The notes under the pieces were generated by a model. It was not told the origin of the DNA. It did not search any database and saw only the letters and a list, made by a program, of their open reading frames with translations. Of a stretch of DNA of 64,000 nucleotides, positions 11,898 through 18,534 are shown piece after piece (position 1 is the stretch's first letter; each line of letters begins with the position of its first letter). The DNA is taken from positions 1 through 64,000 of the forward strand of contig NZ_JAUSAR010000100.1 of the NCBI RefSeq assembly GCF_030652515.1, written 5' to 3'. A program made the position numbers and the translations under genes. Source of the DNA: Aquabacterium sp. Lineage in GTDB: Bacteria; Pseudomonadota; Gammaproteobacteria; Burkholderiales; Burkholderiaceae_C.

Positions 11898-11973
11898 GCG
11901 CCCGTAGCTCAATGGATAGAGTACTGCCCTCCGAAGGCAGGGGTTGCTGGTTCGATCCCAGCCGGGCGCACCA
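11898..11973 (+). tRNA. tRNA-Arg (anticodon CCG)
   Basis: This is a 76-base cloverleaf: acceptor GCGCCCG/CGGGCGC, D arm GCTCAATGGATAGAGT, anticodon stem CTGCC/GGCAG with loop CTCCGAA, T arm GCTGGTTCGATCCCAGC, and an encoded CCA. Its 3' half is duplicated identically at 17869-17910, marking it as the attachment site of a genomic island. Confidence 0.97.
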
Positions 11974-11979
11974 AGGTTG
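11932..11979 (+). repeat. Left 48-bp direct repeat (att site in tRNA-Arg)
   Basis: From CGAAGGCAGG in the anticodon loop through the CCA end and six bases beyond (AAGGTTG region), 48 bases are identical to 17869-17916. Flanking bases remain similar but diverged further downstream (CTTGACC then ...CCCTGC in both). Crossovers in the 3' half of a tRNA gene are typical of tyrosine-recombinase elements. Confidence 0.88.
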
Positions 11980-12154
11980 ACTTGACCGGTCCAACCATCC
12001 CTGCTGTGAAGTGAGGCATTACATGGCGAGAATGCCACGTAATGCTTTATTGCAAGTTGAGCCACGAATTGCCTTATCGGGCCCTCTGAGGGGCCCACGC
12101 TGGGGACGGAGCGGTCAATCCGTCGTGTTCCGTAGACACAGCCCAGCGAAGGTT

Positions 12155-12475
12155 ATGGCTGCCACGAAGTCCAAGTCCCCCCCTCGTCCTCGCCGCATCA
12201 CAGGCAAAGAGGACGACCTGATGGCGGATGAGGCTAGGCAGATCCTTCGAGCCGAGATGGTTCGCCGGGGGTACAGCTTCAAGATGCTCGCGGAAGCCCT
12301 TGCCGAGCAGCAAGGTGGCGGGCCCATCGAGTTGGTTCAGTCTTTGACGAACAAGGTGAACCGGGGGCGGTTTTCCTTTGCGTTCTTCTTGCGGGCAGCC
12401 CGTGCGATGGGCGTGCCGTCATTGGAGTTGGAGGCGGTCCTTCCACCTTCAACTAGCGTTGAATCGGCGAAATGA
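12155..12475 (+). CDS. DUF6471-like small regulator
   Basis: The 106-residue protein has a basic N-terminus (KSKSPPRPRR) followed by a helical domain (about residues 25-95). The motif is MADEARQILRAEMVRRGYSFKMLAEAL...NKVNRGRFSFAFFLRAARAMGV, which looks like the DUF6471 family of helix-turn-helix-like proteins. I chose the ATG at 12155 after AGCGAAGG; other in-frame starts lie upstream (12011) and downstream (about 12221). It is the first island gene after the tRNA, divergent from everything else there. A regulatory role is inferred only. Confidence 0.65.
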   Translation: MAATKSKSPPRPRRITGKEDDLMADEARQILRAEMVRRGYSFKMLAEALAEQQGGGPIELVQSLTNKVNRGRFSFAFFLRAARAMGVPSLELEAVLPPSTSVESAK

Positions 12476-12632
12476 ACATGGTCCATAGGTGCTCGGCGGC
12501 GCCCTCGTCCGTCAGGCGAGAGTCTCGGTTGCCTTGGAACATGCCCATCGTTGCCTTCAGGCACATCAGGTGCTGAGCTACTTCGCGCTTTTGGGCAGGT
12601 GCAGCGTTGAGGCTGGTCCAAGATGGACTCAC
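12453..12632 (-). CDS. Possible small protein downstream of tag
   Basis: The 59-codon frame starts at GTG 4 bases after the tag stop. It contains a helical, coding-like stretch (PAQKREVAQHLMCLKATMGMF...TDEGAAEHLWTMFI). It overlaps the 3' end of the DUF6471-like gene on the other strand by 23 bases. I do not recognise it, and there is no clear ribosome binding site. It may be coupled to tag, or it may be the remnant of a longer gene. Confidence 0.35.
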   Translation of the reverse strand: MSPSWTSLNAAPAQKREVAQHLMCLKATMGMFQGNRDSRLTDEGAAEHLWTMFISPIQR

Positions 12633-12636
12633 GTTT

Positions 12637-13245
12637 TCAATTTGGCCGCTTGAAAGCCATGCGAGCCTCTTCTGCATGAATCCTGATCGCACAATCGCGT
12701 GCGTGATCGTTGACCATGCCCATGGCTTGCATGAACGCATACACCGTCGTAGGCCCAACGAACTTCCACCCTCGCCGTTTCAACTCTTTTGACAGCGCTA
12801 TGGACTCAGGCGTCGTTGAGACGGTTTGAGGCTCGTGCTGACCTTGGCCCTGAGGTTCAAAACGCCAGTAGAAGGTTGCCAATGAGCCGGCTTCGGCCAC
12901 CAACTCTTGCGCGCGGGCGGCGTTGTGGATCACAGCTTCGATCTTGCCTCGGTGCCTGACGATGCTCTCGTCCTGGAGCAGACGCGCAACATCCGCGTTG
13001 CTAAATCGGGTCAGTTTGTTGAAGTCGAACCCAAGGAATGCGCGCCGGAAGTTGTCGCGCTTGGTCAGTATGGTTCGCCAACTCAAGCCTGATTGAAACC
13101 CTTCCAGGCAGATCTTCTCGAATAGCCTGATGTCGTCTGACACAGGCAAGCCCCATTCGTCGTCGTGATACGCAAGGTACTCAGGGGTGCTGGCGCACCA
13201 CCGGCAACGATGCAGTCCATCGGGCTCAACAAACAGACCGCTCAT
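12637..13245 (-). CDS. tag: DNA-3-methyladenine glycosylase I
   Basis: The 202-residue protein excises 3-methyladenine from alkylated DNA. It has the family pattern CRWCASTPEYLAYHDDEWGLPVSDD near the N-terminus (C14/C17 region, catalytic-pocket Glu in DDEWG). It continues ICLEGFQSGLSWRTILTKRDNFRRAF, and the C-terminal GWKFVGPTTVYAFMQAMGMVNDH supplies the zinc His residue. The start overlaps the yciI-like gene by 4 bases (ATGA). As part of the island operon it suggests a detoxification/repair theme with the OYE reductase. Confidence 0.94.
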   Translation of the reverse strand: MSGLFVEPDGLHRCRWCASTPEYLAYHDDEWGLPVSDDIRLFEKICLEGFQSGLSWRTILTKRDNFRRAFLGFDFNKLTRFSNADVARLLQDESIVRHRGKIEAVIHNAARAQELVAEAGSLATFYWRFEPQGQGQHEPQTVSTTPESIALSKELKRRGWKFVGPTTVYAFMQAMGMVNDHARDCAIRIHAEEARMAFKRPN

Positions 13246-13538
13246 GCGGATGGCTCCATCAGCTCACTCAGTCGGGAATCGGTCTTGGACACGGTGATGT
13301 CAATCACTTCTGCGCGCACGACATCGTTGGCCACAAAAGGGTCTTCACTCAAACGCTGATCCAGGTCGGCTCTGCCCAATCCATGTGCCAACACACATCC
13401 GCCTTGCTGACCTTGCAGGCTGCCGGACGCGATGAAGACGCCTTCATCGAAGCCTTTCTGGAGCCAAGCTTTGTGAGCACTCATCCATTCGCCAGCGAGC
13501 GCCTTGTTGGTTGAGAACTTCAGTTGCACCACGAACAT
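13242..13538 (-). CDS. YciI-like protein
   Basis: The 98-residue protein has a ferredoxin-like YciI/DGPF fold. It starts MFVVQLKFSTNKALAGEWMSAHKAWLQKGFDEGVFIASGSL and carries the YciI pattern around FVANDVVRAEVIDI. Family members are small enzymes or accessory domains with a conserved His-Asp; H22 (SAHKAW) is present. It overlaps tag by 4 bases and lies one base after the TetR gene, so it is translated from the same mRNA. Confidence 0.85.
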   Translation of the reverse strand: MFVVQLKFSTNKALAGEWMSAHKAWLQKGFDEGVFIASGSLQGQQGGCVLAHGLGRADLDQRLSEDPFVANDVVRAEVIDITVSKTDSRLSELMEPSA

Positions 13539-13539
13539 G

Positions 13540-14154
13540 TCAGCATTCTCCGGTCGCAGGGGTTGAAGTGGAGATGTCGTGCAACCACTTCAGCAATTGC
13601 TCGACCTCCTGGTGAATGAAGCCTTCATCGTTGAAGGCGTTGGCCAGCGTGGCAATGCCCTGGCTTCTGGCAAGCAGGTGCATGGCCAGCGCATCTGCGT
13701 TGCGCGGGTATCCCATCTGAACGAATTGGCGCGCAAGCCAATCCCGGAACAGGGTGAACAAAAGACTGGCTTTCGGCTGTGCTGGGTGTTCAAGCTTGGA
13801 CAGTTCTGCGCACAGGGTGCCGACGGGGCAGCCGTGCTGTCGAATCTTTGGCCCATTCATCACCATCATGTGGATGAAGCGGCTCACACGTGCTGCTGGC
13901 GTTGGCGCTTCGGTTTCCCAGCCTTCGAGCATTCCCCGCGTCTTGTGCATTCGTCTTTCAATGACGGCGTCAAGAATGTCGTCTTTGGTCTTGAAGTGAT
14001 AGTAGAAATTGCCCCGAGACAGGTTGACTGCGGAGGCGATGTCCGCGAACGATGTGTGCTCGTACCCGCGCTCATAGAACAACTGATCCGCGATTTCCGT
14101 GATCCGGCTTCGCGTGTTGCCGCTGTCATTCGGTGCCGTGTGTTCTGCGATCAT
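13540..14154 (-). CDS. TetR/AcrR-family regulator
   Basis: The 204-residue protein has an N-terminal HTH (about residues 17-62, ITEIADQLFYERGYEHTSFADIASAVNLSRGNFYYHFKTKDDILDAVI) and a C-terminal ligand domain. It resembles NemR/AcuR-type repressors that sense electrophiles. Its ATG overlaps the stop of the upstream reductase by 4 bases. The repressor is therefore encoded inside the operon it probably controls, and the likely operator lies at 15260-15289. Confidence 0.9.
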   Translation of the reverse strand: MIAEHTAPNDSGNTRSRITEIADQLFYERGYEHTSFADIASAVNLSRGNFYYHFKTKDDILDAVIERRMHKTRGMLEGWETEAPTPAARVSRFIHMMVMNGPKIRQHGCPVGTLCAELSKLEHPAQPKASLLFTLFRDWLARQFVQMGYPRNADALAMHLLARSQGIATLANAFNDEGFIHQEVEQLLKWLHDISTSTPATGEC

Positions 14155-15245
14155 GGTGACACGGGACCTTCATGAGATGGGTAGTCAATGTATCCACGGT
14201 CATTGCCACCATAAAAGCTGGCATGGTCTGGCGTGTTCAATGGCAAGTCTTCACGAAAGCGCCTCACAAGATCTGGGTTGGCCAGGAACGGCGTGCCGAA
14301 GGCGACAAGATCGGCCGCGCCAGAACGAATGGCGGCTTGTGCGCTCTCCTTGCTATAGCCATTGTTGGCCATGTAGATGCCGCCGAACGCGGCACGCATC
14401 TGCTGATAGTCCACCTTGCAGCCCTGCGTCATCATGTCGCCTTCCAGGACATGGAGGTAGGCCAAATTCAATGGGCTAAGCCATTGCGCGAACTGGCCAA
14501 AGTGTTTTTGAGGATCGGAGTCATGCATGTCATTGAAGCTGTTCTCGGGACTCAGCCGTACACCCACCCTGTGGGTCGGCCACACAGCGGTCACGGCATT
14601 CAGCACCTCAGCCAGAAATCGAAACCTGGCTTCCGGTGAGCCTCCGTAGGTGTCGCTTCGCTGATTGCTGCCATCTCGCAAGAACTGGTCTATCAAGTAG
14701 CCATTCGCGCTGTGCACCTCGACACCATCAAACCCTGCGGCCACAGCGAACTGGGCTGCGAGCTTGAACTGCGCGACCGTGGCGTTGATCTCCTCAACGT
14801 CAAGCTCAACAGGCGTCACAAAGTCCTGCGGCCCTGTGTACGTCATGGCCTGCCCTGATGGCTTGAGCGCTGACGGCGCCACAGGGCTTAGCCCATCAGG
14901 CAGCAGTGTGGGGTGAGACACCCGACCGCAATGCTGCAACTGGGCAAAGATCAAACCATGCCGCGCGTGAACAGCATCAGTGACTGCTCGCCAACCCAGT
15001 ACCTGCGCTTCAGTGAAAAGGCCTGGCGTGAAGGGATAGCCAATGCCCAGACTTGAAACTGGCACCGACTCAGAGATGATCAACCCGGCCTCAGCACGCT
15101 GTGCGTAGTAGGTCGCCATCAACGGTGACGGCACGCCGAGTTGGTCAGCGCGATTGCGCGTCATTGGGGCCATCACCATTCTGTTGGCCAGGTCAAGCGA
15201 TCCGACCTTGAGTGGCGAGAAGAGATTTATTGGCATGTCGTTCAC
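14151..15245 (-). CDS. Old Yellow Enzyme-type NADH:flavin oxidoreductase
   Basis: The 364-residue FMN enzyme probably reduces activated alkenes or nitro-compounds (NemA-like). TIM-barrel motifs: MAPMTRNRA (26-34), substrate residues His178 and Asn181 in EVHSANGYLIDQFL with Tyr183 as proton donor, and FMN-phosphate residues near NNGY and GTPFLANPDL. Around 102-108 the usual QLWHVGR reads QLQHCGR, an unusual Trp-to-Gln change. It is the first gene of a four- or five-gene operon with overlapping junctions. Confidence 0.93.
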   Translation of the reverse strand: MNDMPINLFSPLKVGSLDLANRMVMAPMTRNRADQLGVPSPLMATYYAQRAEAGLIISESVPVSSLGIGYPFTPGLFTEAQVLGWRAVTDAVHARHGLIFAQLQHCGRVSHPTLLPDGLSPVAPSALKPSGQAMTYTGPQDFVTPVELDVEEINATVAQFKLAAQFAVAAGFDGVEVHSANGYLIDQFLRDGSNQRSDTYGGSPEARFRFLAEVLNAVTAVWPTHRVGVRLSPENSFNDMHDSDPQKHFGQFAQWLSPLNLAYLHVLEGDMMTQGCKVDYQQMRAAFGGIYMANNGYSKESAQAAIRSGAADLVAFGTPFLANPDLVRRFREDLPLNTPDHASFYGGNDRGYIDYPSHEGPVSP

Positions 15246-15259
15246 TTGTAGGTCATTTG

Positions 15260-15299
15260 TCCTAAAGTCATTTTAGGATGATTGTCCTATATGAGTCAA
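15260..15299 (-). promoter_or_regulatory. Promoter and TetR-type operator of the reductase operon
   Basis: Minus-strand promoter: TTGACT (15294-15299), an 18-base spacer, and TAAAAT (15270-15275). The inverted repeat TCCTAAA-N5-TTTAGGA (15260-15278) covers the -10, and a third TCCTA half-site lies at 15285-15289 in the spacer. Repressor binding would block polymerase. The TetR gene within the operon is the obvious candidate. Confidence 0.7.
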
Positions 15300-15365
15300 G
15301 TAGAGATCTACGCTTCACATCAGGTGATGAATTGATCGCTCATCAGGTAGAAGAGGCGAAATGAG

Positions 15366-15782
15366 TTGTTGCTCTGTGGGCCCGAGGACATCAGCGCAAC
15401 TTCATTCGAGCAACAATCTGGCGTCGTACTTCTTCGCTTAGCAACAGCTTGGAGCCTCCTCAAAACCCGGGGCGATTCAGAGTTGTCGTTTGCCATGAGG
15501 TTTGACGCGCGCGATAACTCAAGCCCGGCCATTGCAGGCGCCCCAATCTTTATGGGCCTCACGGTCGCGCCGGATGGCATCTCTTTCAAGGGCGAGACGG
15601 TGAACGTCAGAAACTCGGGGGACGACATGGTGATGTCCATCCTGGACACGCCAGCGTTCAAGAGTGGTCTGACGCTGCTGAACACTGCTCAGCCAGCCTT
15701 GAAGCCGCTGACAAGCTTGGCTATGGCCGCAGCATGCCGTTTGCGAGAAGCCGGTGTACTCGATGGGAGCGGCGATAGCTAG
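15366..15782 (+). CDS. Uncharacterised coding-like frame
   Basis: A 138-codon plus-strand frame starts at TTG, with no clear ribosome binding site. The second half looks protein-like (APDGISFKGETVNVRNSGDDMVMSILDTPAF...SLAMAAACRLREAGVL) but I do not recognise a family. It may be the 3' part of a gene whose 5' end was lost. It fills part of the 666-base gap between the reductase promoter and hipA. Confidence 0.3.
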   Translation: MLLCGPEDISATSFEQQSGVVLLRLATAWSLLKTRGDSELSFAMRFDARDNSSPAIAGAPIFMGLTVAPDGISFKGETVNVRNSGDDMVMSILDTPAFKSGLTLLNTAQPALKPLTSLAMAAACRLREAGVLDGSGDS

Positions 15783-15897
15783 TGAAGAGGCGATTTCAAG
15801 CCTGCTGCAGCAACCTCTAGACGTGGAGCCGACCCAGCGTCGGACTGGTAGGCTCACAAAGCGTGAGGAAATCGAGCGCCGAAACGGACGAAGCTGA
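15763..15897 (+). CDS. Short uncharacterised frame, possible gene remnant
   Basis: The 44-codon frame (MGAAIASEEAISSLLQQPLD...RLTKREEIERRNGRS) overlaps the end of the preceding frame in another register. The coding-like reading continues upstream of the ATG for about 20 codons, suggesting the C-terminus of a degraded protein. No family is recognised. Confidence 0.25.
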   Translation: MGAAIASEEAISSLLQQPLDVEPTQRRTGRLTKREEIERRNGRS

Positions 15898-15911
15898 CCT
15901 TCGTTTGCGGT

Positions 15912-17180
15912 CTATGACGCTTGACGGAATCTGGCCTGTGCCTTTTTGGTGATCGACTTCACCTCGTGTGTCAGGTGTTCCGCAAATGTTTGGCTGCTGC
16001 GGGCCAGCAGAGGCGAGATCTCATTCGCGGCTTGATCGATGGCAGCAGGCACCTTCACGGCCACATTCTCTGCAACTGTCTGCAGATACCGTGGTTTCAT
16101 GCCCAGTTGCTGGGCCATGCCTTGCAGTTGGGCGTGGCCCATCTGCCCTGGCAACACTTCGCCGCCCACGTTGAAGGCGAACTCTTTGGATAGTCCTGGG
16201 TAGATGCGCGTGCACATCAGGTCGTAGAAGGGCGTGAGACGCACGCCTTGGCCTGGCAATGCGTGCAACGACAGGTTCTTGGCATGGCTGTCGTTGTTGC
16301 CCACGCAGATGTTGAAGAACACCCATTGCACCAGCGCTTGCAAGTCAAGGGCTGCGCGTGAGCTGTGTTCGCGGATCAGTCGGGCGCAGGCTTCGAGCCC
16401 GGGCCCGCCTTCCTTCTCGTATTTTTTCTCGGACACGGTACCGGCCAACTGGCACAGGTCGTACTGGATGACGCGGCTCAAGCCGCCATCGTCTCTGCGA
16501 AGGCGGTCAAAGCGCTCGACCACACATGCCTTGGTCAGCGGCTCGTAGAAGACCTCCGCCGTTTTGAGGCCGCAGTGCTTGGCGGTGCGCATGATGATGG
16601 CCTCGTTGACGGCACTGTCCCGCACCTTGGCCAGCCTGCGGATGTCTGGCTTGAGGATGTGGGTAGACGGTGCATGGCCCTTGGGCAGCATGGGTTGCCC
16701 GTCGAAGATGGCGATGGTCGCTTTGTCCTGAGCACCAGCCAGTGAGATGCGCGCATCATCACCTTGGACCTGGATGGCTGCGGCTGATTTGGACTTCAGG
16801 ATGTCAGCAATCGCCTGCCAGCTGGTGGGCTCGTATTGAGGTGGCTGCGGGCGCTGGCCTTGGGGCAGCATCACGTAGGCGCCAGCCGTGTCGCCTGCCA
16901 CCTCTTGCAGCAGCGCGAACAGGGTGGATGCCTTGCGCTGAGCCGAGAGGTAGGCACGCACCTCGCCCTCGGGCAGCAGGTTCTCGAAGAAGGCCTGCAC
17001 CTGAGCTGCGACCAGGCGCCCTGGCTGGAGCGCGATGCTGGACAAGGGGAAGGGGGCGGCCGGCTGTTGTCTGCCCAGCCAGGTCTGCGCGTATTCGAAG
17101 CTCAAGGGCTCGGTGTCGAAGACGGTGCCGATCAACTCATCGCCATGGAAGACGTCCAGCGCAGTGACGCGTTCCATCAC
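15912..17180 (-). CDS. hipA: HipA-type serine/threonine kinase toxin
   Basis: The 422-residue HipA-like kinase would inhibit growth by phosphorylating a translation factor (GltX in E. coli) when not held by HipB. Kinase features are complete: the activation-loop-like ISLAGAQDK with autophosphorylation Ser146, ATP lysine in HILKPDI (Lys177), catalytic NNDSHAKN (Asp297, Asn302), and metal-binding YDL (Asp320). The N-terminal subdomain-1 is fused, unlike split HipST systems. The start overlaps the hipB stop by 4 bases. Confidence 0.93.
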   Translation of the reverse strand: MMERVTALDVFHGDELIGTVFDTEPLSFEYAQTWLGRQQPAAPFPLSSIALQPGRLVAAQVQAFFENLLPEGEVRAYLSAQRKASTLFALLQEVAGDTAGAYVMLPQGQRPQPPQYEPTSWQAIADILKSKSAAAIQVQGDDARISLAGAQDKATIAIFDGQPMLPKGHAPSTHILKPDIRRLAKVRDSAVNEAIIMRTAKHCGLKTAEVFYEPLTKACVVERFDRLRRDDGGLSRVIQYDLCQLAGTVSEKKYEKEGGPGLEACARLIREHSSRAALDLQALVQWVFFNICVGNNDSHAKNLSLHALPGQGVRLTPFYDLMCTRIYPGLSKEFAFNVGGEVLPGQMGHAQLQGMAQQLGMKPRYLQTVAENVAVKVPAAIDQAANEISPLLARSSQTFAEHLTHEVKSITKKAQARFRQAS

Positions 17181-17443
17181 AGCGTCCTGGATGTCTTGGG
17201 CTGGACCACGACTTCCAGGCCGAGGATGTCGAGCAGGTCGAGCACCTTCTGAAGTTGCACCGTGGGCTTGCCGCTTTCCACATCGACGATCAAGCGGTTG
17301 CCGGTGTTGGCCAGGCCTGCGACATCGAGCTGGCGCAGGTTCATGCCGTTGCGCTGCCGTTTGACCATCTGACCGATGTCCAGCGCGGTGCGAACCACAT
17401 GTGGTGTCTGGTCGTGCAGGGGGCTGTCAGCTTTGGCGTCCAT
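17177..17443 (-). CDS. hipB: HipB-type antitoxin and autorepressor
   Basis: The 88-residue protein has an XRE-type helix-turn-helix (about residues 22-75, IGQMVKRQRNGMNLRQLDVAGLANTGNRLIVDVESGKPTVQLQKVLDLLDILGL). It would bind and inactivate HipA and repress the operon as a dimer. It is translated first, and its ATG at 17443 lies 14 bases downstream of operator 1. Three matching palindromes upstream support autoregulation. Confidence 0.92.
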   Translation of the reverse strand: MDAKADSPLHDQTPHVVRTALDIGQMVKRQRNGMNLRQLDVAGLANTGNRLIVDVESGKPTVQLQKVLDLLDILGLEVVVQPKTSRTL

Positions 17444-17456
17444 GGACTGGCTTTCA

Positions 17457-17572
17457 AATTACCGTTGGGTAATTCTATGCGGATGGCACGTGCACCACAA
17501 GTGAATGGTTACCGATCGGTAATTTTTCCGGGTAATCGGGGGTGCGGCGGAGTGTAATTACCGAACGGTAAT
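17457..17572 (-). promoter_or_regulatory. hipBA promoter with three phased operators
   Basis: Three perfect inverted repeats share TTACC-N4-GGTAA: AATTACCGTTGGGTAATT (17457-17474), TTACCGATCGGTAA (17509-17522) and ATTACCGAACGGTAAT (17557-17572). The centres are 50 and 49 bp apart. A minus-strand promoter, TTGTGG (17495-17500) and TAGAAT (17472-17477) with a 17-base spacer, is overlapped by the first operator at its -10, and the second lies just upstream of the -35. A half-site, GGGTAATCGG, is near 17530. Confidence 0.82.
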
Positions 17573-17868
17573 CCATGGCTGCTTGACTATCAATTCAAGG
17601 TCGCAACTTAGGAGTCAGTTGCGACTTGCCTTGTCTGCCTGCTTGTTCGCATTGCTCAATTCGTCCAGGGCCTCCGTCGACCAACTCAAAGCCACCGGGG
17701 GGCGTGTCCTGGCTGAGGTGGTGAAGGTGTTAGAGAACCTCTGAGCTCCGACACTTTTCCGACAGTTACCCCAGGAAACGCCGGTATACTGAGGTCTACC
17801 CTGCTTTACTAAGTGGTTGATTTTGCGAGGTTTTCAGTGTCCCTCGCAGTCGGAAATGGCGCTCCGAA
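17573..17868. other. Island right end, no recognised gene
   Basis: About 300 bases lie between the hipB operators and the right repeat. A short frame ending ...DQLKATGGRVLAEVVKVLENL and stopping near 17744 looks weakly protein-like and could be the tail of a lost gene. An inverted repeat CTGCGAGG...-type element is visible around 17826-17848 (GCGAGG / CCTCGC). I find no integrase motif. Confidence 0.4.
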
Positions 17869-17916
17869 CGAAGGCAGGGGTTGCTGGTTCGATCCCAGCC
17901 GGGCGCACCAAGGTTG
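17869..17916 (+). repeat. Right 48-bp direct repeat (tRNA-Arg 3' half)
   Basis: These 48 bases are identical to 11932-11979 and contain the T arm, acceptor 3' strand and CCA of tRNA-Arg. There is no 5' half, so it is not a functional tRNA. Because the core gene dinB starts 54 bases later, this copy is probably the ancestral tRNA end, displaced when the island supplied a new one. Confidence 0.88.
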
Positions 17917-17970
17917 GCTTGACCAGGCCACCCACCCCTGCAGACAATGAAGCTCGACAGGAGAGGCTTC

Positions 17971-18474
17971 ATGAACTTGCAGGATTACGCCACCACGATG
18001 GCGCACTACAACCGGTGGATGAACGAGAAGGTCTACGCGGCCGCCGCCGGTTTGACCGATGGGCAGCGCAAGCAGGATCAGGGCGCCTTCTTTGGCTCCA
18101 TCCACCGCACCTTGAATCACATCTTGCTGGGCGATCAGGCCTGGATGCAGCGTCTGCATGGTGAAAAGGTCTTGATGACCTCGCCTGGGCAGGAGCTGTT
18201 CAGTGACTTTGAGGCTTTGCGCGCCGCCCGTGCCGAAACCGATGCGCGCCTGCTGGCCTGGGCGCAGTCGCTGGGCCCCACCAGCGACACTGCCACCCTG
18301 ACGTTTTTCAGCGTCACTTACCAAAAGCAGCGCACCCTGAGTCATTCGGTGGTCGCCATGCAATTGTTCAACCACCAGACCCATCACCGCGGGCAGGTGA
18401 GCACATTGCTGAGCCAATTGGGCGTTGACGTGGGGGTCACCGACCTGCCGTGGATGCCCTACCTCGACACCTGA
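17971..18474 (+). CDS. DinB-family putative metal-dependent enzyme
   Basis: The 167-residue four-helix-bundle protein starts MNLQDYATTMAHYNRWMNEKVY. The three DinB metal-ligand histidines are present: His50 (RTLNHILLGD) and His135/His139 (FNHQTHHRGQ). Relatives are thiol-dependent S-transferases, and the substrate is unknown. I chose the ATG at 17971 after AGGAGAGG. It stands just outside the tRNA-Arg island. Confidence 0.9.
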   Translation: MNLQDYATTMAHYNRWMNEKVYAAAAGLTDGQRKQDQGAFFGSIHRTLNHILLGDQAWMQRLHGEKVLMTSPGQELFSDFEALRAARAETDARLLAWAQSLGPTSDTATLTFFSVTYQKQRTLSHSVVAMQLFNHQTHHRGQVSTLLSQLGVDVGVTDLPWMPYLDT

Positions 18475-18534
18475 GCCTCGATATTTCCCGGATTCATCCG
18501 ATATCACTGGCATGTGGATGAAGGTGCAGTGGTG

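What the first reader, a model, noticed from the sequence alone, without database searches (positions are those of the whole stretch)
11898..17916. Compact tRNA-Arg genomic island without an integrase
An identical 48-bp repeat of the tRNA-Arg(CCG) 3' half frames 5,937 bp (copy to copy). The cargo is a DUF6471-like protein, an OYE/TetR/YciI/tag operon and hipBA. No integrase or other mobility gene is visible. The right copy adjoins dinB and should be the ancestral tRNA end, so the left tRNA 3' half came with the island. A stripped or satellite-like integrative element moved in trans would explain this. Downstream of the 48 bp the two flanks are still similar but diverged, which suggests an incoming att site from a related genome.
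Basis: partly seen in the sequence, partly recalled or inferred. Interest (0 to 1): 0.75.

Follow-up and report, generated by a model that had tools for sequence, protein, structure and literature searches.

The report
Decayed tRNA-Arg island kept beside hipBA
A 5.9-kb stretch of foreign DNA sits after an arginine tRNA gene in an Aquabacterium-related genome; it looks like a broken-down mobile island patched together from pieces that sit at the same tRNA in sister species, with a toxin-antitoxin pair at its far end, and is largely ordinary.

Summary
In detail: an intact tRNA-Arg(CCG) gene (11898-11973) and a second copy of its 3' half (48 bp identical, 5,937 bp apart) frame low-GC cargo with no integrase. 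Kin are Aquabacterium. In sister species the same tRNA carries elements with a tyrosine integrase beside the tRNA, a paired TCCGACA motif in both end arms, and toxin-antitoxin genes at the right end. The window island keeps such a right end (hipBA, motif pair, arm hairpin) but lacks the integrase and the left motif pair, and its right core has a 4-bp CGAA duplication (17865-17872). Its left part is a DUF6471 gene plus a short 3' stub of a Thoeris-type thsB gene that is full length in G016, joined to tag-YciI-TetR-OYE. It is best read as a deletion chimera resembling a cis-mobilizable element (CIME), not a satellite that moves in trans now. Two close relatives have no island (G015, G456); dinB is in none of the three near relatives whose locus could be read. 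The oddest by-product is a hairpin with covarying stem in the right arm, seen also in an integrase-less mini-island at tRNA-Val in G034.

The parts
11898..11973 (+). intact tRNA-Arg(CCG); its 3' half (from 11932) is taken to be the element-borne copy
11932..11979 (+). left copy of the 48-bp repeat (attL core)
11974..12004 (+). flank of the left copy, similar to the flank of the right copy; no TCCGACA pair within 300 bp
12005..12475 (+). DUF6471 gene segment (ORF 12011-12475), 89.6% nt to the segment after tRNA-Arg in G016
12453..12576 (-). 3' stub (about 40 codons) of a thsB (Thoeris TIR) gene that is full length in G016; overlaps the end of the DUF6471 ORF; deletion junction between 12577 and about 12640
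   Evidence: translations; nt; profile of the G016 protein
12637..13245 (-). tag, DNA-3-methyladenine glycosylase I family
13242..13538 (-).
13540..14154 (-). TetR-family regulator
14151..15245 (-). old-yellow-enzyme family reductase (Oxidored_FMN)
15912..17180 (-). hipA, toxin kinase family
17177..17443 (-). hipB, HTH antitoxin family
17457..17572 (.). three palindromic ATTACCG-like sites upstream of hipB; HipB operators by inference
17747..17764 (+). paired motif TCCGACA-CTTT-TCCGACA, right-arm signature of this element family
17785..17790 (+). TATACT, a -10-like box (TATACT or TATAAT in 6 of 7 tRNA-Arg right arms, by eye; broken in G026); not flagged by the promoter scan
17824..17848 (+). 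hairpin, 7-bp stem that covaries, 11-nt loop TTTT(C/T)AGTGTC
17865..17872 (+). CGAACGAA, a 4-bp duplication in the right core; absent from the other copies printed
17869..17916 (+). right copy of the 48-bp repeat (attR core; displaced 3' half of the tRNA)
17947..18474 (+). dinB-family gene outside the island; origin unclear, absent here in G015, G034 and G456

Best explanation
A decayed, chimeric tRNA-Arg(CCG) integrative element, CIME-like. Shown by comparison: an integrase-encoding family of elements uses this tRNA in the genus (integrase beside the tRNA, TCCGACA pairs in both arms, toxin-type genes at the right end), and the window keeps that family's right end. Shown: the left part is a DUF6471-thsB segment that G016 has at the same tRNA, cut within thsB and fused to tag-YciI-TetR-OYE. 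Inferred: one or more elements from congeners integrated at the tRNA, supplied a new 3' half and displaced the old one to the right; later deletions removed the integrase and left arm; hipBA at the right end resisted loss because cells that lose it are poisoned by leftover HipA, so this end persisted. Inferred: the island can no longer excise by its own family's integrase, because it lacks the enzyme, one arm and an exact core.
For: Integrase next to the tRNA in G004 and G029, its start at contig ends in G010 and G014, fragments in the 2.46-kb hipBA island of G026. TCCGACANTTNTCCGACA: 13 hits in 42 whole genomes, 12 in arms at tRNA-Arg and 1 in an arm at tRNA-Val; left pairs in G004, G010, G014, G026 and G029, the five with this integrase's sequence beside the tRNA; G000 has a right pair only. 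Module against core identities. ThsB of G016 matches its profile at 1-317 of 319, E 7.4e-111. 4-bp duplication in the right core. No match to the family integrase in the own genome beyond the tRNA stretch. Precedent: HipAB stabilises a tRNA-borne composite island in Shewanella (PMC8978831, passages read).
Against: The 48 bp are still identical and the right arm is whole, so decay is recent or some function remains. No genome seen holds the whole cargo, so the order of events is open. tag-YciI-TetR is only 71-75% identical to G001/G028, so it may be older. On the right, own-lineage identity is shown only from 18475 on (G034) or 18830 on (G015, G456), not from the right copy. HipBA activity and addiction were not tested. 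That TCCGACA pairs bind the integrase is inferred from position; they could be regulator sites. No test was made of whether toxin-type genes are more common here than elsewhere.
Confidence: 0.75

Rival explanations
1. A satellite or stripped element mobilised in trans by the integrase of a related element.
For: Whole right arm and 48-bp repeat; elements in sister species carry an integrase with the same right arm; integrase-less stretches between two tRNA copies also occur in G003 and G018.
Against: No left motif pair, 4-bp duplication in the right core, no such integrase in the own genome. The integrase-less islands differ in content, and G026 still holds integrase fragments, which points to decay.
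Confidence: 0.12
2. The segment arrived by homologous recombination with a congener around the tRNA, without site-specific recombination; the repeat came along as an older scar.
For: Flanks after both copies are similar; DUF6471, tag-YciI-TetR and hipBA are each found downstream of tRNA-Arg in congeners; the origin of dinB, just right of the island, is not shown.
Against: Upstream DNA up to the tRNA is of the own lineage (84-87% to G015, G034, G456) and the congener-like blocks lie between the two tRNA copies.
Confidence: 0.1
3. An assembly chimera at the repeat in a draft genome with 8.99% estimated contamination.
For: Contigs of G005, G010, G013 and G018 end at or close to this tRNA.
Against: The copies differ right after the 48 bp and by the CGAA duplication; both outer flanks match the same close relatives; the order hipA-hipB-arm-copy is also seen in G026 and, with one more gene, in G029.
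Confidence: 0.05

Closest known systems
CIME (cis-mobilizable element; definition from passages of PMC5704250)
   Same: Integration genes lost, flanked by copies of a tRNA 3' end; in G004 an integrase-bearing island lies next to broken hipBA pieces, as in accretion.
   Different: Left motif pair missing and right core altered, so the att sites are not both whole; descent from a conjugative element not shown.
HipAB-stabilised composite island CGI48 of Shewanella putrefaciens (PMC8978831, passages)
   Same: tRNA-borne island with a HipAB module.
   Different: CGI48 is 48 kb, excises when its integrase is overproduced, and carries hipAB on an inserted 21-kb island; here no integrase is left and hipBA sits at the right end.
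State-dependent int promoter at the 3' end of ICEKp1 and ICEclc (PMC13023037, passages)
   Same: Right end next to the core with a -10-like box and a hairpin that in a circle would precede int.
   Different: Promoter activity untested, no recognised -35, and no int remains in the window; the stem-loops studied in ICEKp1 lie on the int side.
Tycheposons (passages of PMC10872708 and PMC11389934)
   Same: Cargo islands at tRNA genes linked to tyrosine recombinases.
   Different: Described as 4-200 kb elements; no sequence link was tested.

Membership tests
tRNA-targeted genomic island | Intact tRNA at one end and a 3'-half copy at the other | tested here: met
tRNA-targeted genomic island | Absent from close relatives at the same locus | tested here: met
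   G015 and G456: tRNA to GGDEF in about 1.3 kb, no second copy; G034: about 12.5 kb of other DNA, no second copy
tRNA-targeted genomic island | Own integrase gene | tested here: not met
CIME | Integration and transfer genes lost | tested here: met
   no integrase; no integrase or transfer family among the 8 island proteins scanned
CIME | attL and attR retained | tested here: inconclusive
   48 of 48 bp identical, but left motif pair absent and 4-bp duplication in the right core
CIME | Derived from an ICE or IME | tested here: inconclusive
   integrase-bearing kin exist (G004, G029); no relaxase or conjugation search was made
CIME | Moved in cis by accretion with an active element | not testable with these tools
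   needs excision assays
HipBA type II toxin-antitoxin | HipA_C and Couple_hipA domains with an adjacent HTH HipB | tested here: met
   HipB to TIGR03070 65.7 bits, under the 71.65 cut-off
HipBA type II toxin-antitoxin | Toxicity of HipA neutralised by HipB | not testable with these tools
   needs an expression assay

The most novel reading that the evidence does not exclude
A family of tRNA elements, so far seen only in this genus, has a structured right end: a hairpin with covarying stem and near-constant loop TTTT(C/T)AGTGTC between a TCCGACA pair and the core, which acts in the circular form (as leader of int or as a folded site). Its toxin-type modules leave integrase-less 'addiction scars' at tRNA genes: hipBA in the window, PIN/HTH genes in G018, a Fic gene at tRNA-Val in G034, and hipBA with integrase fragments in G026. 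The window is one such scar.
Probability: 0.3. Interest if true: 0.5.

Novelty: new member of a known kind. Interest (0 to 1): 0.32.

Why it matters
One tRNA in one genus shows a possible decay series: integrase-bearing islands (G004, G029), an island with integrase fragments (G026), and integrase-less ones (G000, G003, G018), with toxin-type genes at the right end. That makes the idea that addiction modules decide which part of a decaying island survives testable. The covarying hairpin gives a handle on how the right arm works.

Tried and rejected
Rejected: a second real tRNA-Arg gene at the right copy. Rejected: an integrase elsewhere on the window's contig. Rejected: dinB as the conserved neighbour; a trace of its 3' end in G034 is about 40 bp and weak. 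A first right-arm pattern, up to 3 mismatches, in 399 family genomes (only 6 of them of this genus) found the window and one 3-mismatch hit in G104 that I did not follow; that pattern would miss the tRNA-Val arm of G034, so it says little about other genera. The hairpin pattern in viral contigs gave 13 matches in coding-like or AT-rich DNA, none with the full stem and none on a stretch with a tRNA gene, so taken as chance. The DUF6471 protein has no plasmid match; its DNA segment is in 2 of 42 genus genomes (G000, G016), a third match in G458 being 46 bp. hipA relatives in Rhodoferax, Hydrogenophaga and Polaromonas (61-67%) have no tRNA gene on the fetched stretches. The first family-wide search hit mostly tRNA genes because its query held the tRNA half. 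G014's two right-end ORFs had no confident Pfam match. The integrase comparison translated minus-strand matches in the wrong direction; it was redone. Searches for a published account: (206, 31, 3,119, 110 and 716 papers matched, 10-15 listed each); none of the listed titles and abstract openings names this element or an Aquabacterium tRNA-Arg island. Seen of papers: passages of PMC5704250, PMC8978831, PMC10872708, PMC11389934, PMC13023037; abstract and outline of PMC2654960; otherwise listings only. Labels recalled or by eye, from no call: GGDEF, MDH (metal-dependent hydrolase) and ACAD for the flanking genes, 'PEP-CTERM-type' for the gene after tRNA-Arg in G015, the -10-like box, and HipB operators.
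Full report
Where it is. The window is contig C28, 1-64000, of a draft genome of 5.42 Mb in 229 contigs, completeness 99.98%, contamination 8.99%. The genus set holds 42 genomes, the own one included.

One tRNA-Arg(CCG) gene lies at 11898-11973. Its 3' half recurs at 17869 with 48 identical bases, 73 at 93%, spacing 5,937; a search of the whole window lists no other direct repeat of 45 bp or more. The right copy reads CTCCGAACGAAGG where the tRNA and the other copies printed read CTCCGAAGG, a 4-bp duplication.

The locus in relatives. tabulates the locus in 35 of the 42 genomes (38 entries, three genomes split over two contigs); G008, G009, G013, G020, G030, G031 and G458 are not in it. The stretches are 3 to 64 kb long. 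Of the 36 congeners searched (which scores only the best candidates per genome), nine show an extra copy that lacks the 5' half (G003, G004, G010, G014, G018, G025, G026, G029, G036); ARAGORN calls the one of G025 a short tRNA-Arg. G005 shows two intact copies, both near contig ends. G015 and G456, upstream core 84-85% identical, have the GGDEF gene about 1.3 kb after the tRNA and no second copy; G034 (87%) has about 12.5 kb there. dinB is at this place in none of the three. The gene between tRNA and GGDEF in G015 looks PEP-CTERM-like by my reading. So the island is an insertion relative to G015 and G456. Own-lineage identity resumes at 18475 (G034) or 18830 (G015, G456), so dinB, between the right copy and that point, is of unproven origin.

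The element family. G004 and G029 carry a tyrosine integrase directly after the tRNA, in islands of 11.5 and 36.7 kb. G010 and G014 have its start at contig ends; G026 has a 2.46-kb island of hipBA with integrase fragments. G025 and G036 have other tyrosine recombinases near the distal copy, that of G036 weak at 27 bits. In G003 (1.79 kb, hipBA) and G018 (2.2 kb, PIN_3, HTH_17 and a 143-aa ORF without Pfam match) the ORFs between the copies leave no room for an integrase; the listing is cut and does not settle this alone. In G018 the contig begins at the first copy, so what lies left of it is unknown. The own genome has other tyrosine recombinases, 24-32% identical to that of G004 over parts, but no match to the G029 integrase beyond 21 residues that are the tRNA itself in translation.

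Arms. TCCGACANTTNTCCGACA occurs 13 times in the 42 whole genomes, and the reversed control pattern never. Twelve hits are arms at tRNA-Arg: right arms in G000, G004, G010, G014, G018, G026 and G029, left arms in G004, G010, G014, G026 and G029. These last five are the genomes with sequence of this integrase beside the tRNA. The thirteenth is a right arm at tRNA-Val in G034. In 526,795 bp of the 38 entries CCGACA-N5-CCGACA occurs 11 times, each within 215 bp of a core copy. The motif was first noticed in some of these arms, so one search is not independent; one search covers whole genomes. In the window one match is found with up to 2 mismatches, 0.03 expected. The window, G018 and the hipBA island of G003 have no left pair; G003 has no right pair either.

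Chimera. Window 12005-12576 matches G016 at 90% (515 of 573), and in both genomes the block starts 31-32 bp after the tRNA. In G016 it runs into a 333-aa TIR protein that matches the ThsB profile from 1 to 317 of 319. The window keeps only the last 124 bp or so of that gene (12453-12576), after which tag follows. tag-YciI-TetR is 71-75% identical to G001 and G028, where it also lies downstream of tRNA-Arg; in G029 tag lies just outside the right copy. hipBA is 90.5-93% identical to G001, G002 (474 bp, contig end), G026 and G029, against 69-73% for the upstream core of these genomes. The own genome has another tag at C117. OYE and the 138-aa ORF were not found downstream of tRNA-Arg in the stretches read; an OYE homolog of 49% lies about 10 kb on the other side in G457, and short OYE-like matches lie about 10 kb off in a few others.

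Toxin-type genes at the right end. Of the 8 right arms with the pair, 7 have a gene of a toxin-type family close by: hipA in G000, G026 and G029 (in G029 hipB is 1.2 kb from the copy, with an HTH_17 gene between), PIN_3 in G004, G010 and G018, Fic in G034. G014 is unassigned. PIN and Fic proteins are not always toxins. I made no count at random loci, so this association has no control.

Hairpin. TTGATT-N7-GTTTT-N-AGTGTC, up to one mismatch, has 7 hits in the 42 genomes, all exact, all right arms (G000, G004, G010, G014, G018, G029, G034), and none of the reversed control. G026 lost it in a deletion. On the 7 arms, which hold five distinct stems, the 7-bp stem forms in 93.9% of cells; 3 pairs change on both sides (4 of 500 shuffles reach that); no shuffle reaches the paired percentage or the covariation score of 0.395; 'further pair types' is not exceptional (215 of 500). 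Of the slid controls, +3 also gives 3 pairs with both sides changed, but 51% of cells paired and a score of 0.102. The tool warns that related sequences can exceed all shuffles. As single-stranded DNA the window arm folds with z -2.74, 1 of 200 shuffles as good. In a circle the hairpin would lie between a -10-like box and int, compatible with the 3'-end promoter arrangement of ICEKp1 (PMC13023037, passages); the promoter scan did not flag that box, so the promoter is a guess.

Verdict. A decayed chimeric tRNA island of a known general kind, its right end probably held by hipBA. Movement in trans is possible for the past and not supported for the present form.

Noticed in passing
window 17824-17848; L220-L226: Right-arm hairpin with covarying stem and near-constant 11-nt loop in 7 element ends of the genus.
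   Followed up: partly
L219 (G034:C14:122001-138000): Integrase-less mini-island at tRNA-Val(CAC): a Fic-domain gene, the same arm signature and a tRNA-Val 3'-half copy, then a 26-residue integrase N-terminal match beyond it.
   Followed up: partly
L054:13462-14128: Broken hipA/hipB pieces just outside the right copy of G004's integrase-bearing island, as if it had inserted beside an older hipBA island.
   Followed up: no
L050 (G029 island): Two DrmD-like helicases and a type IIG restriction-methylation protein among the cargo of the 36.7-kb island.
   Followed up: no
L096:7061-8062: Full-length ThsB-type TIR protein beside DUF6471 at tRNA-Arg in G016; whether thsA is present was not tested.
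   Followed up: no
L182, L190, L194 (G218, G024, G027), within about 0.45 kb after tRNA-Arg: Distant HipA homologs (30-33% identity) lie just after the same tRNA in three further genomes.
   Followed up: no
L004, L005, L009 (G000:C120) and L006, L007, L012 (G000:C92): Two rows of three tyrosine recombinase genes each on short contigs of the own genome.
   Followed up: no
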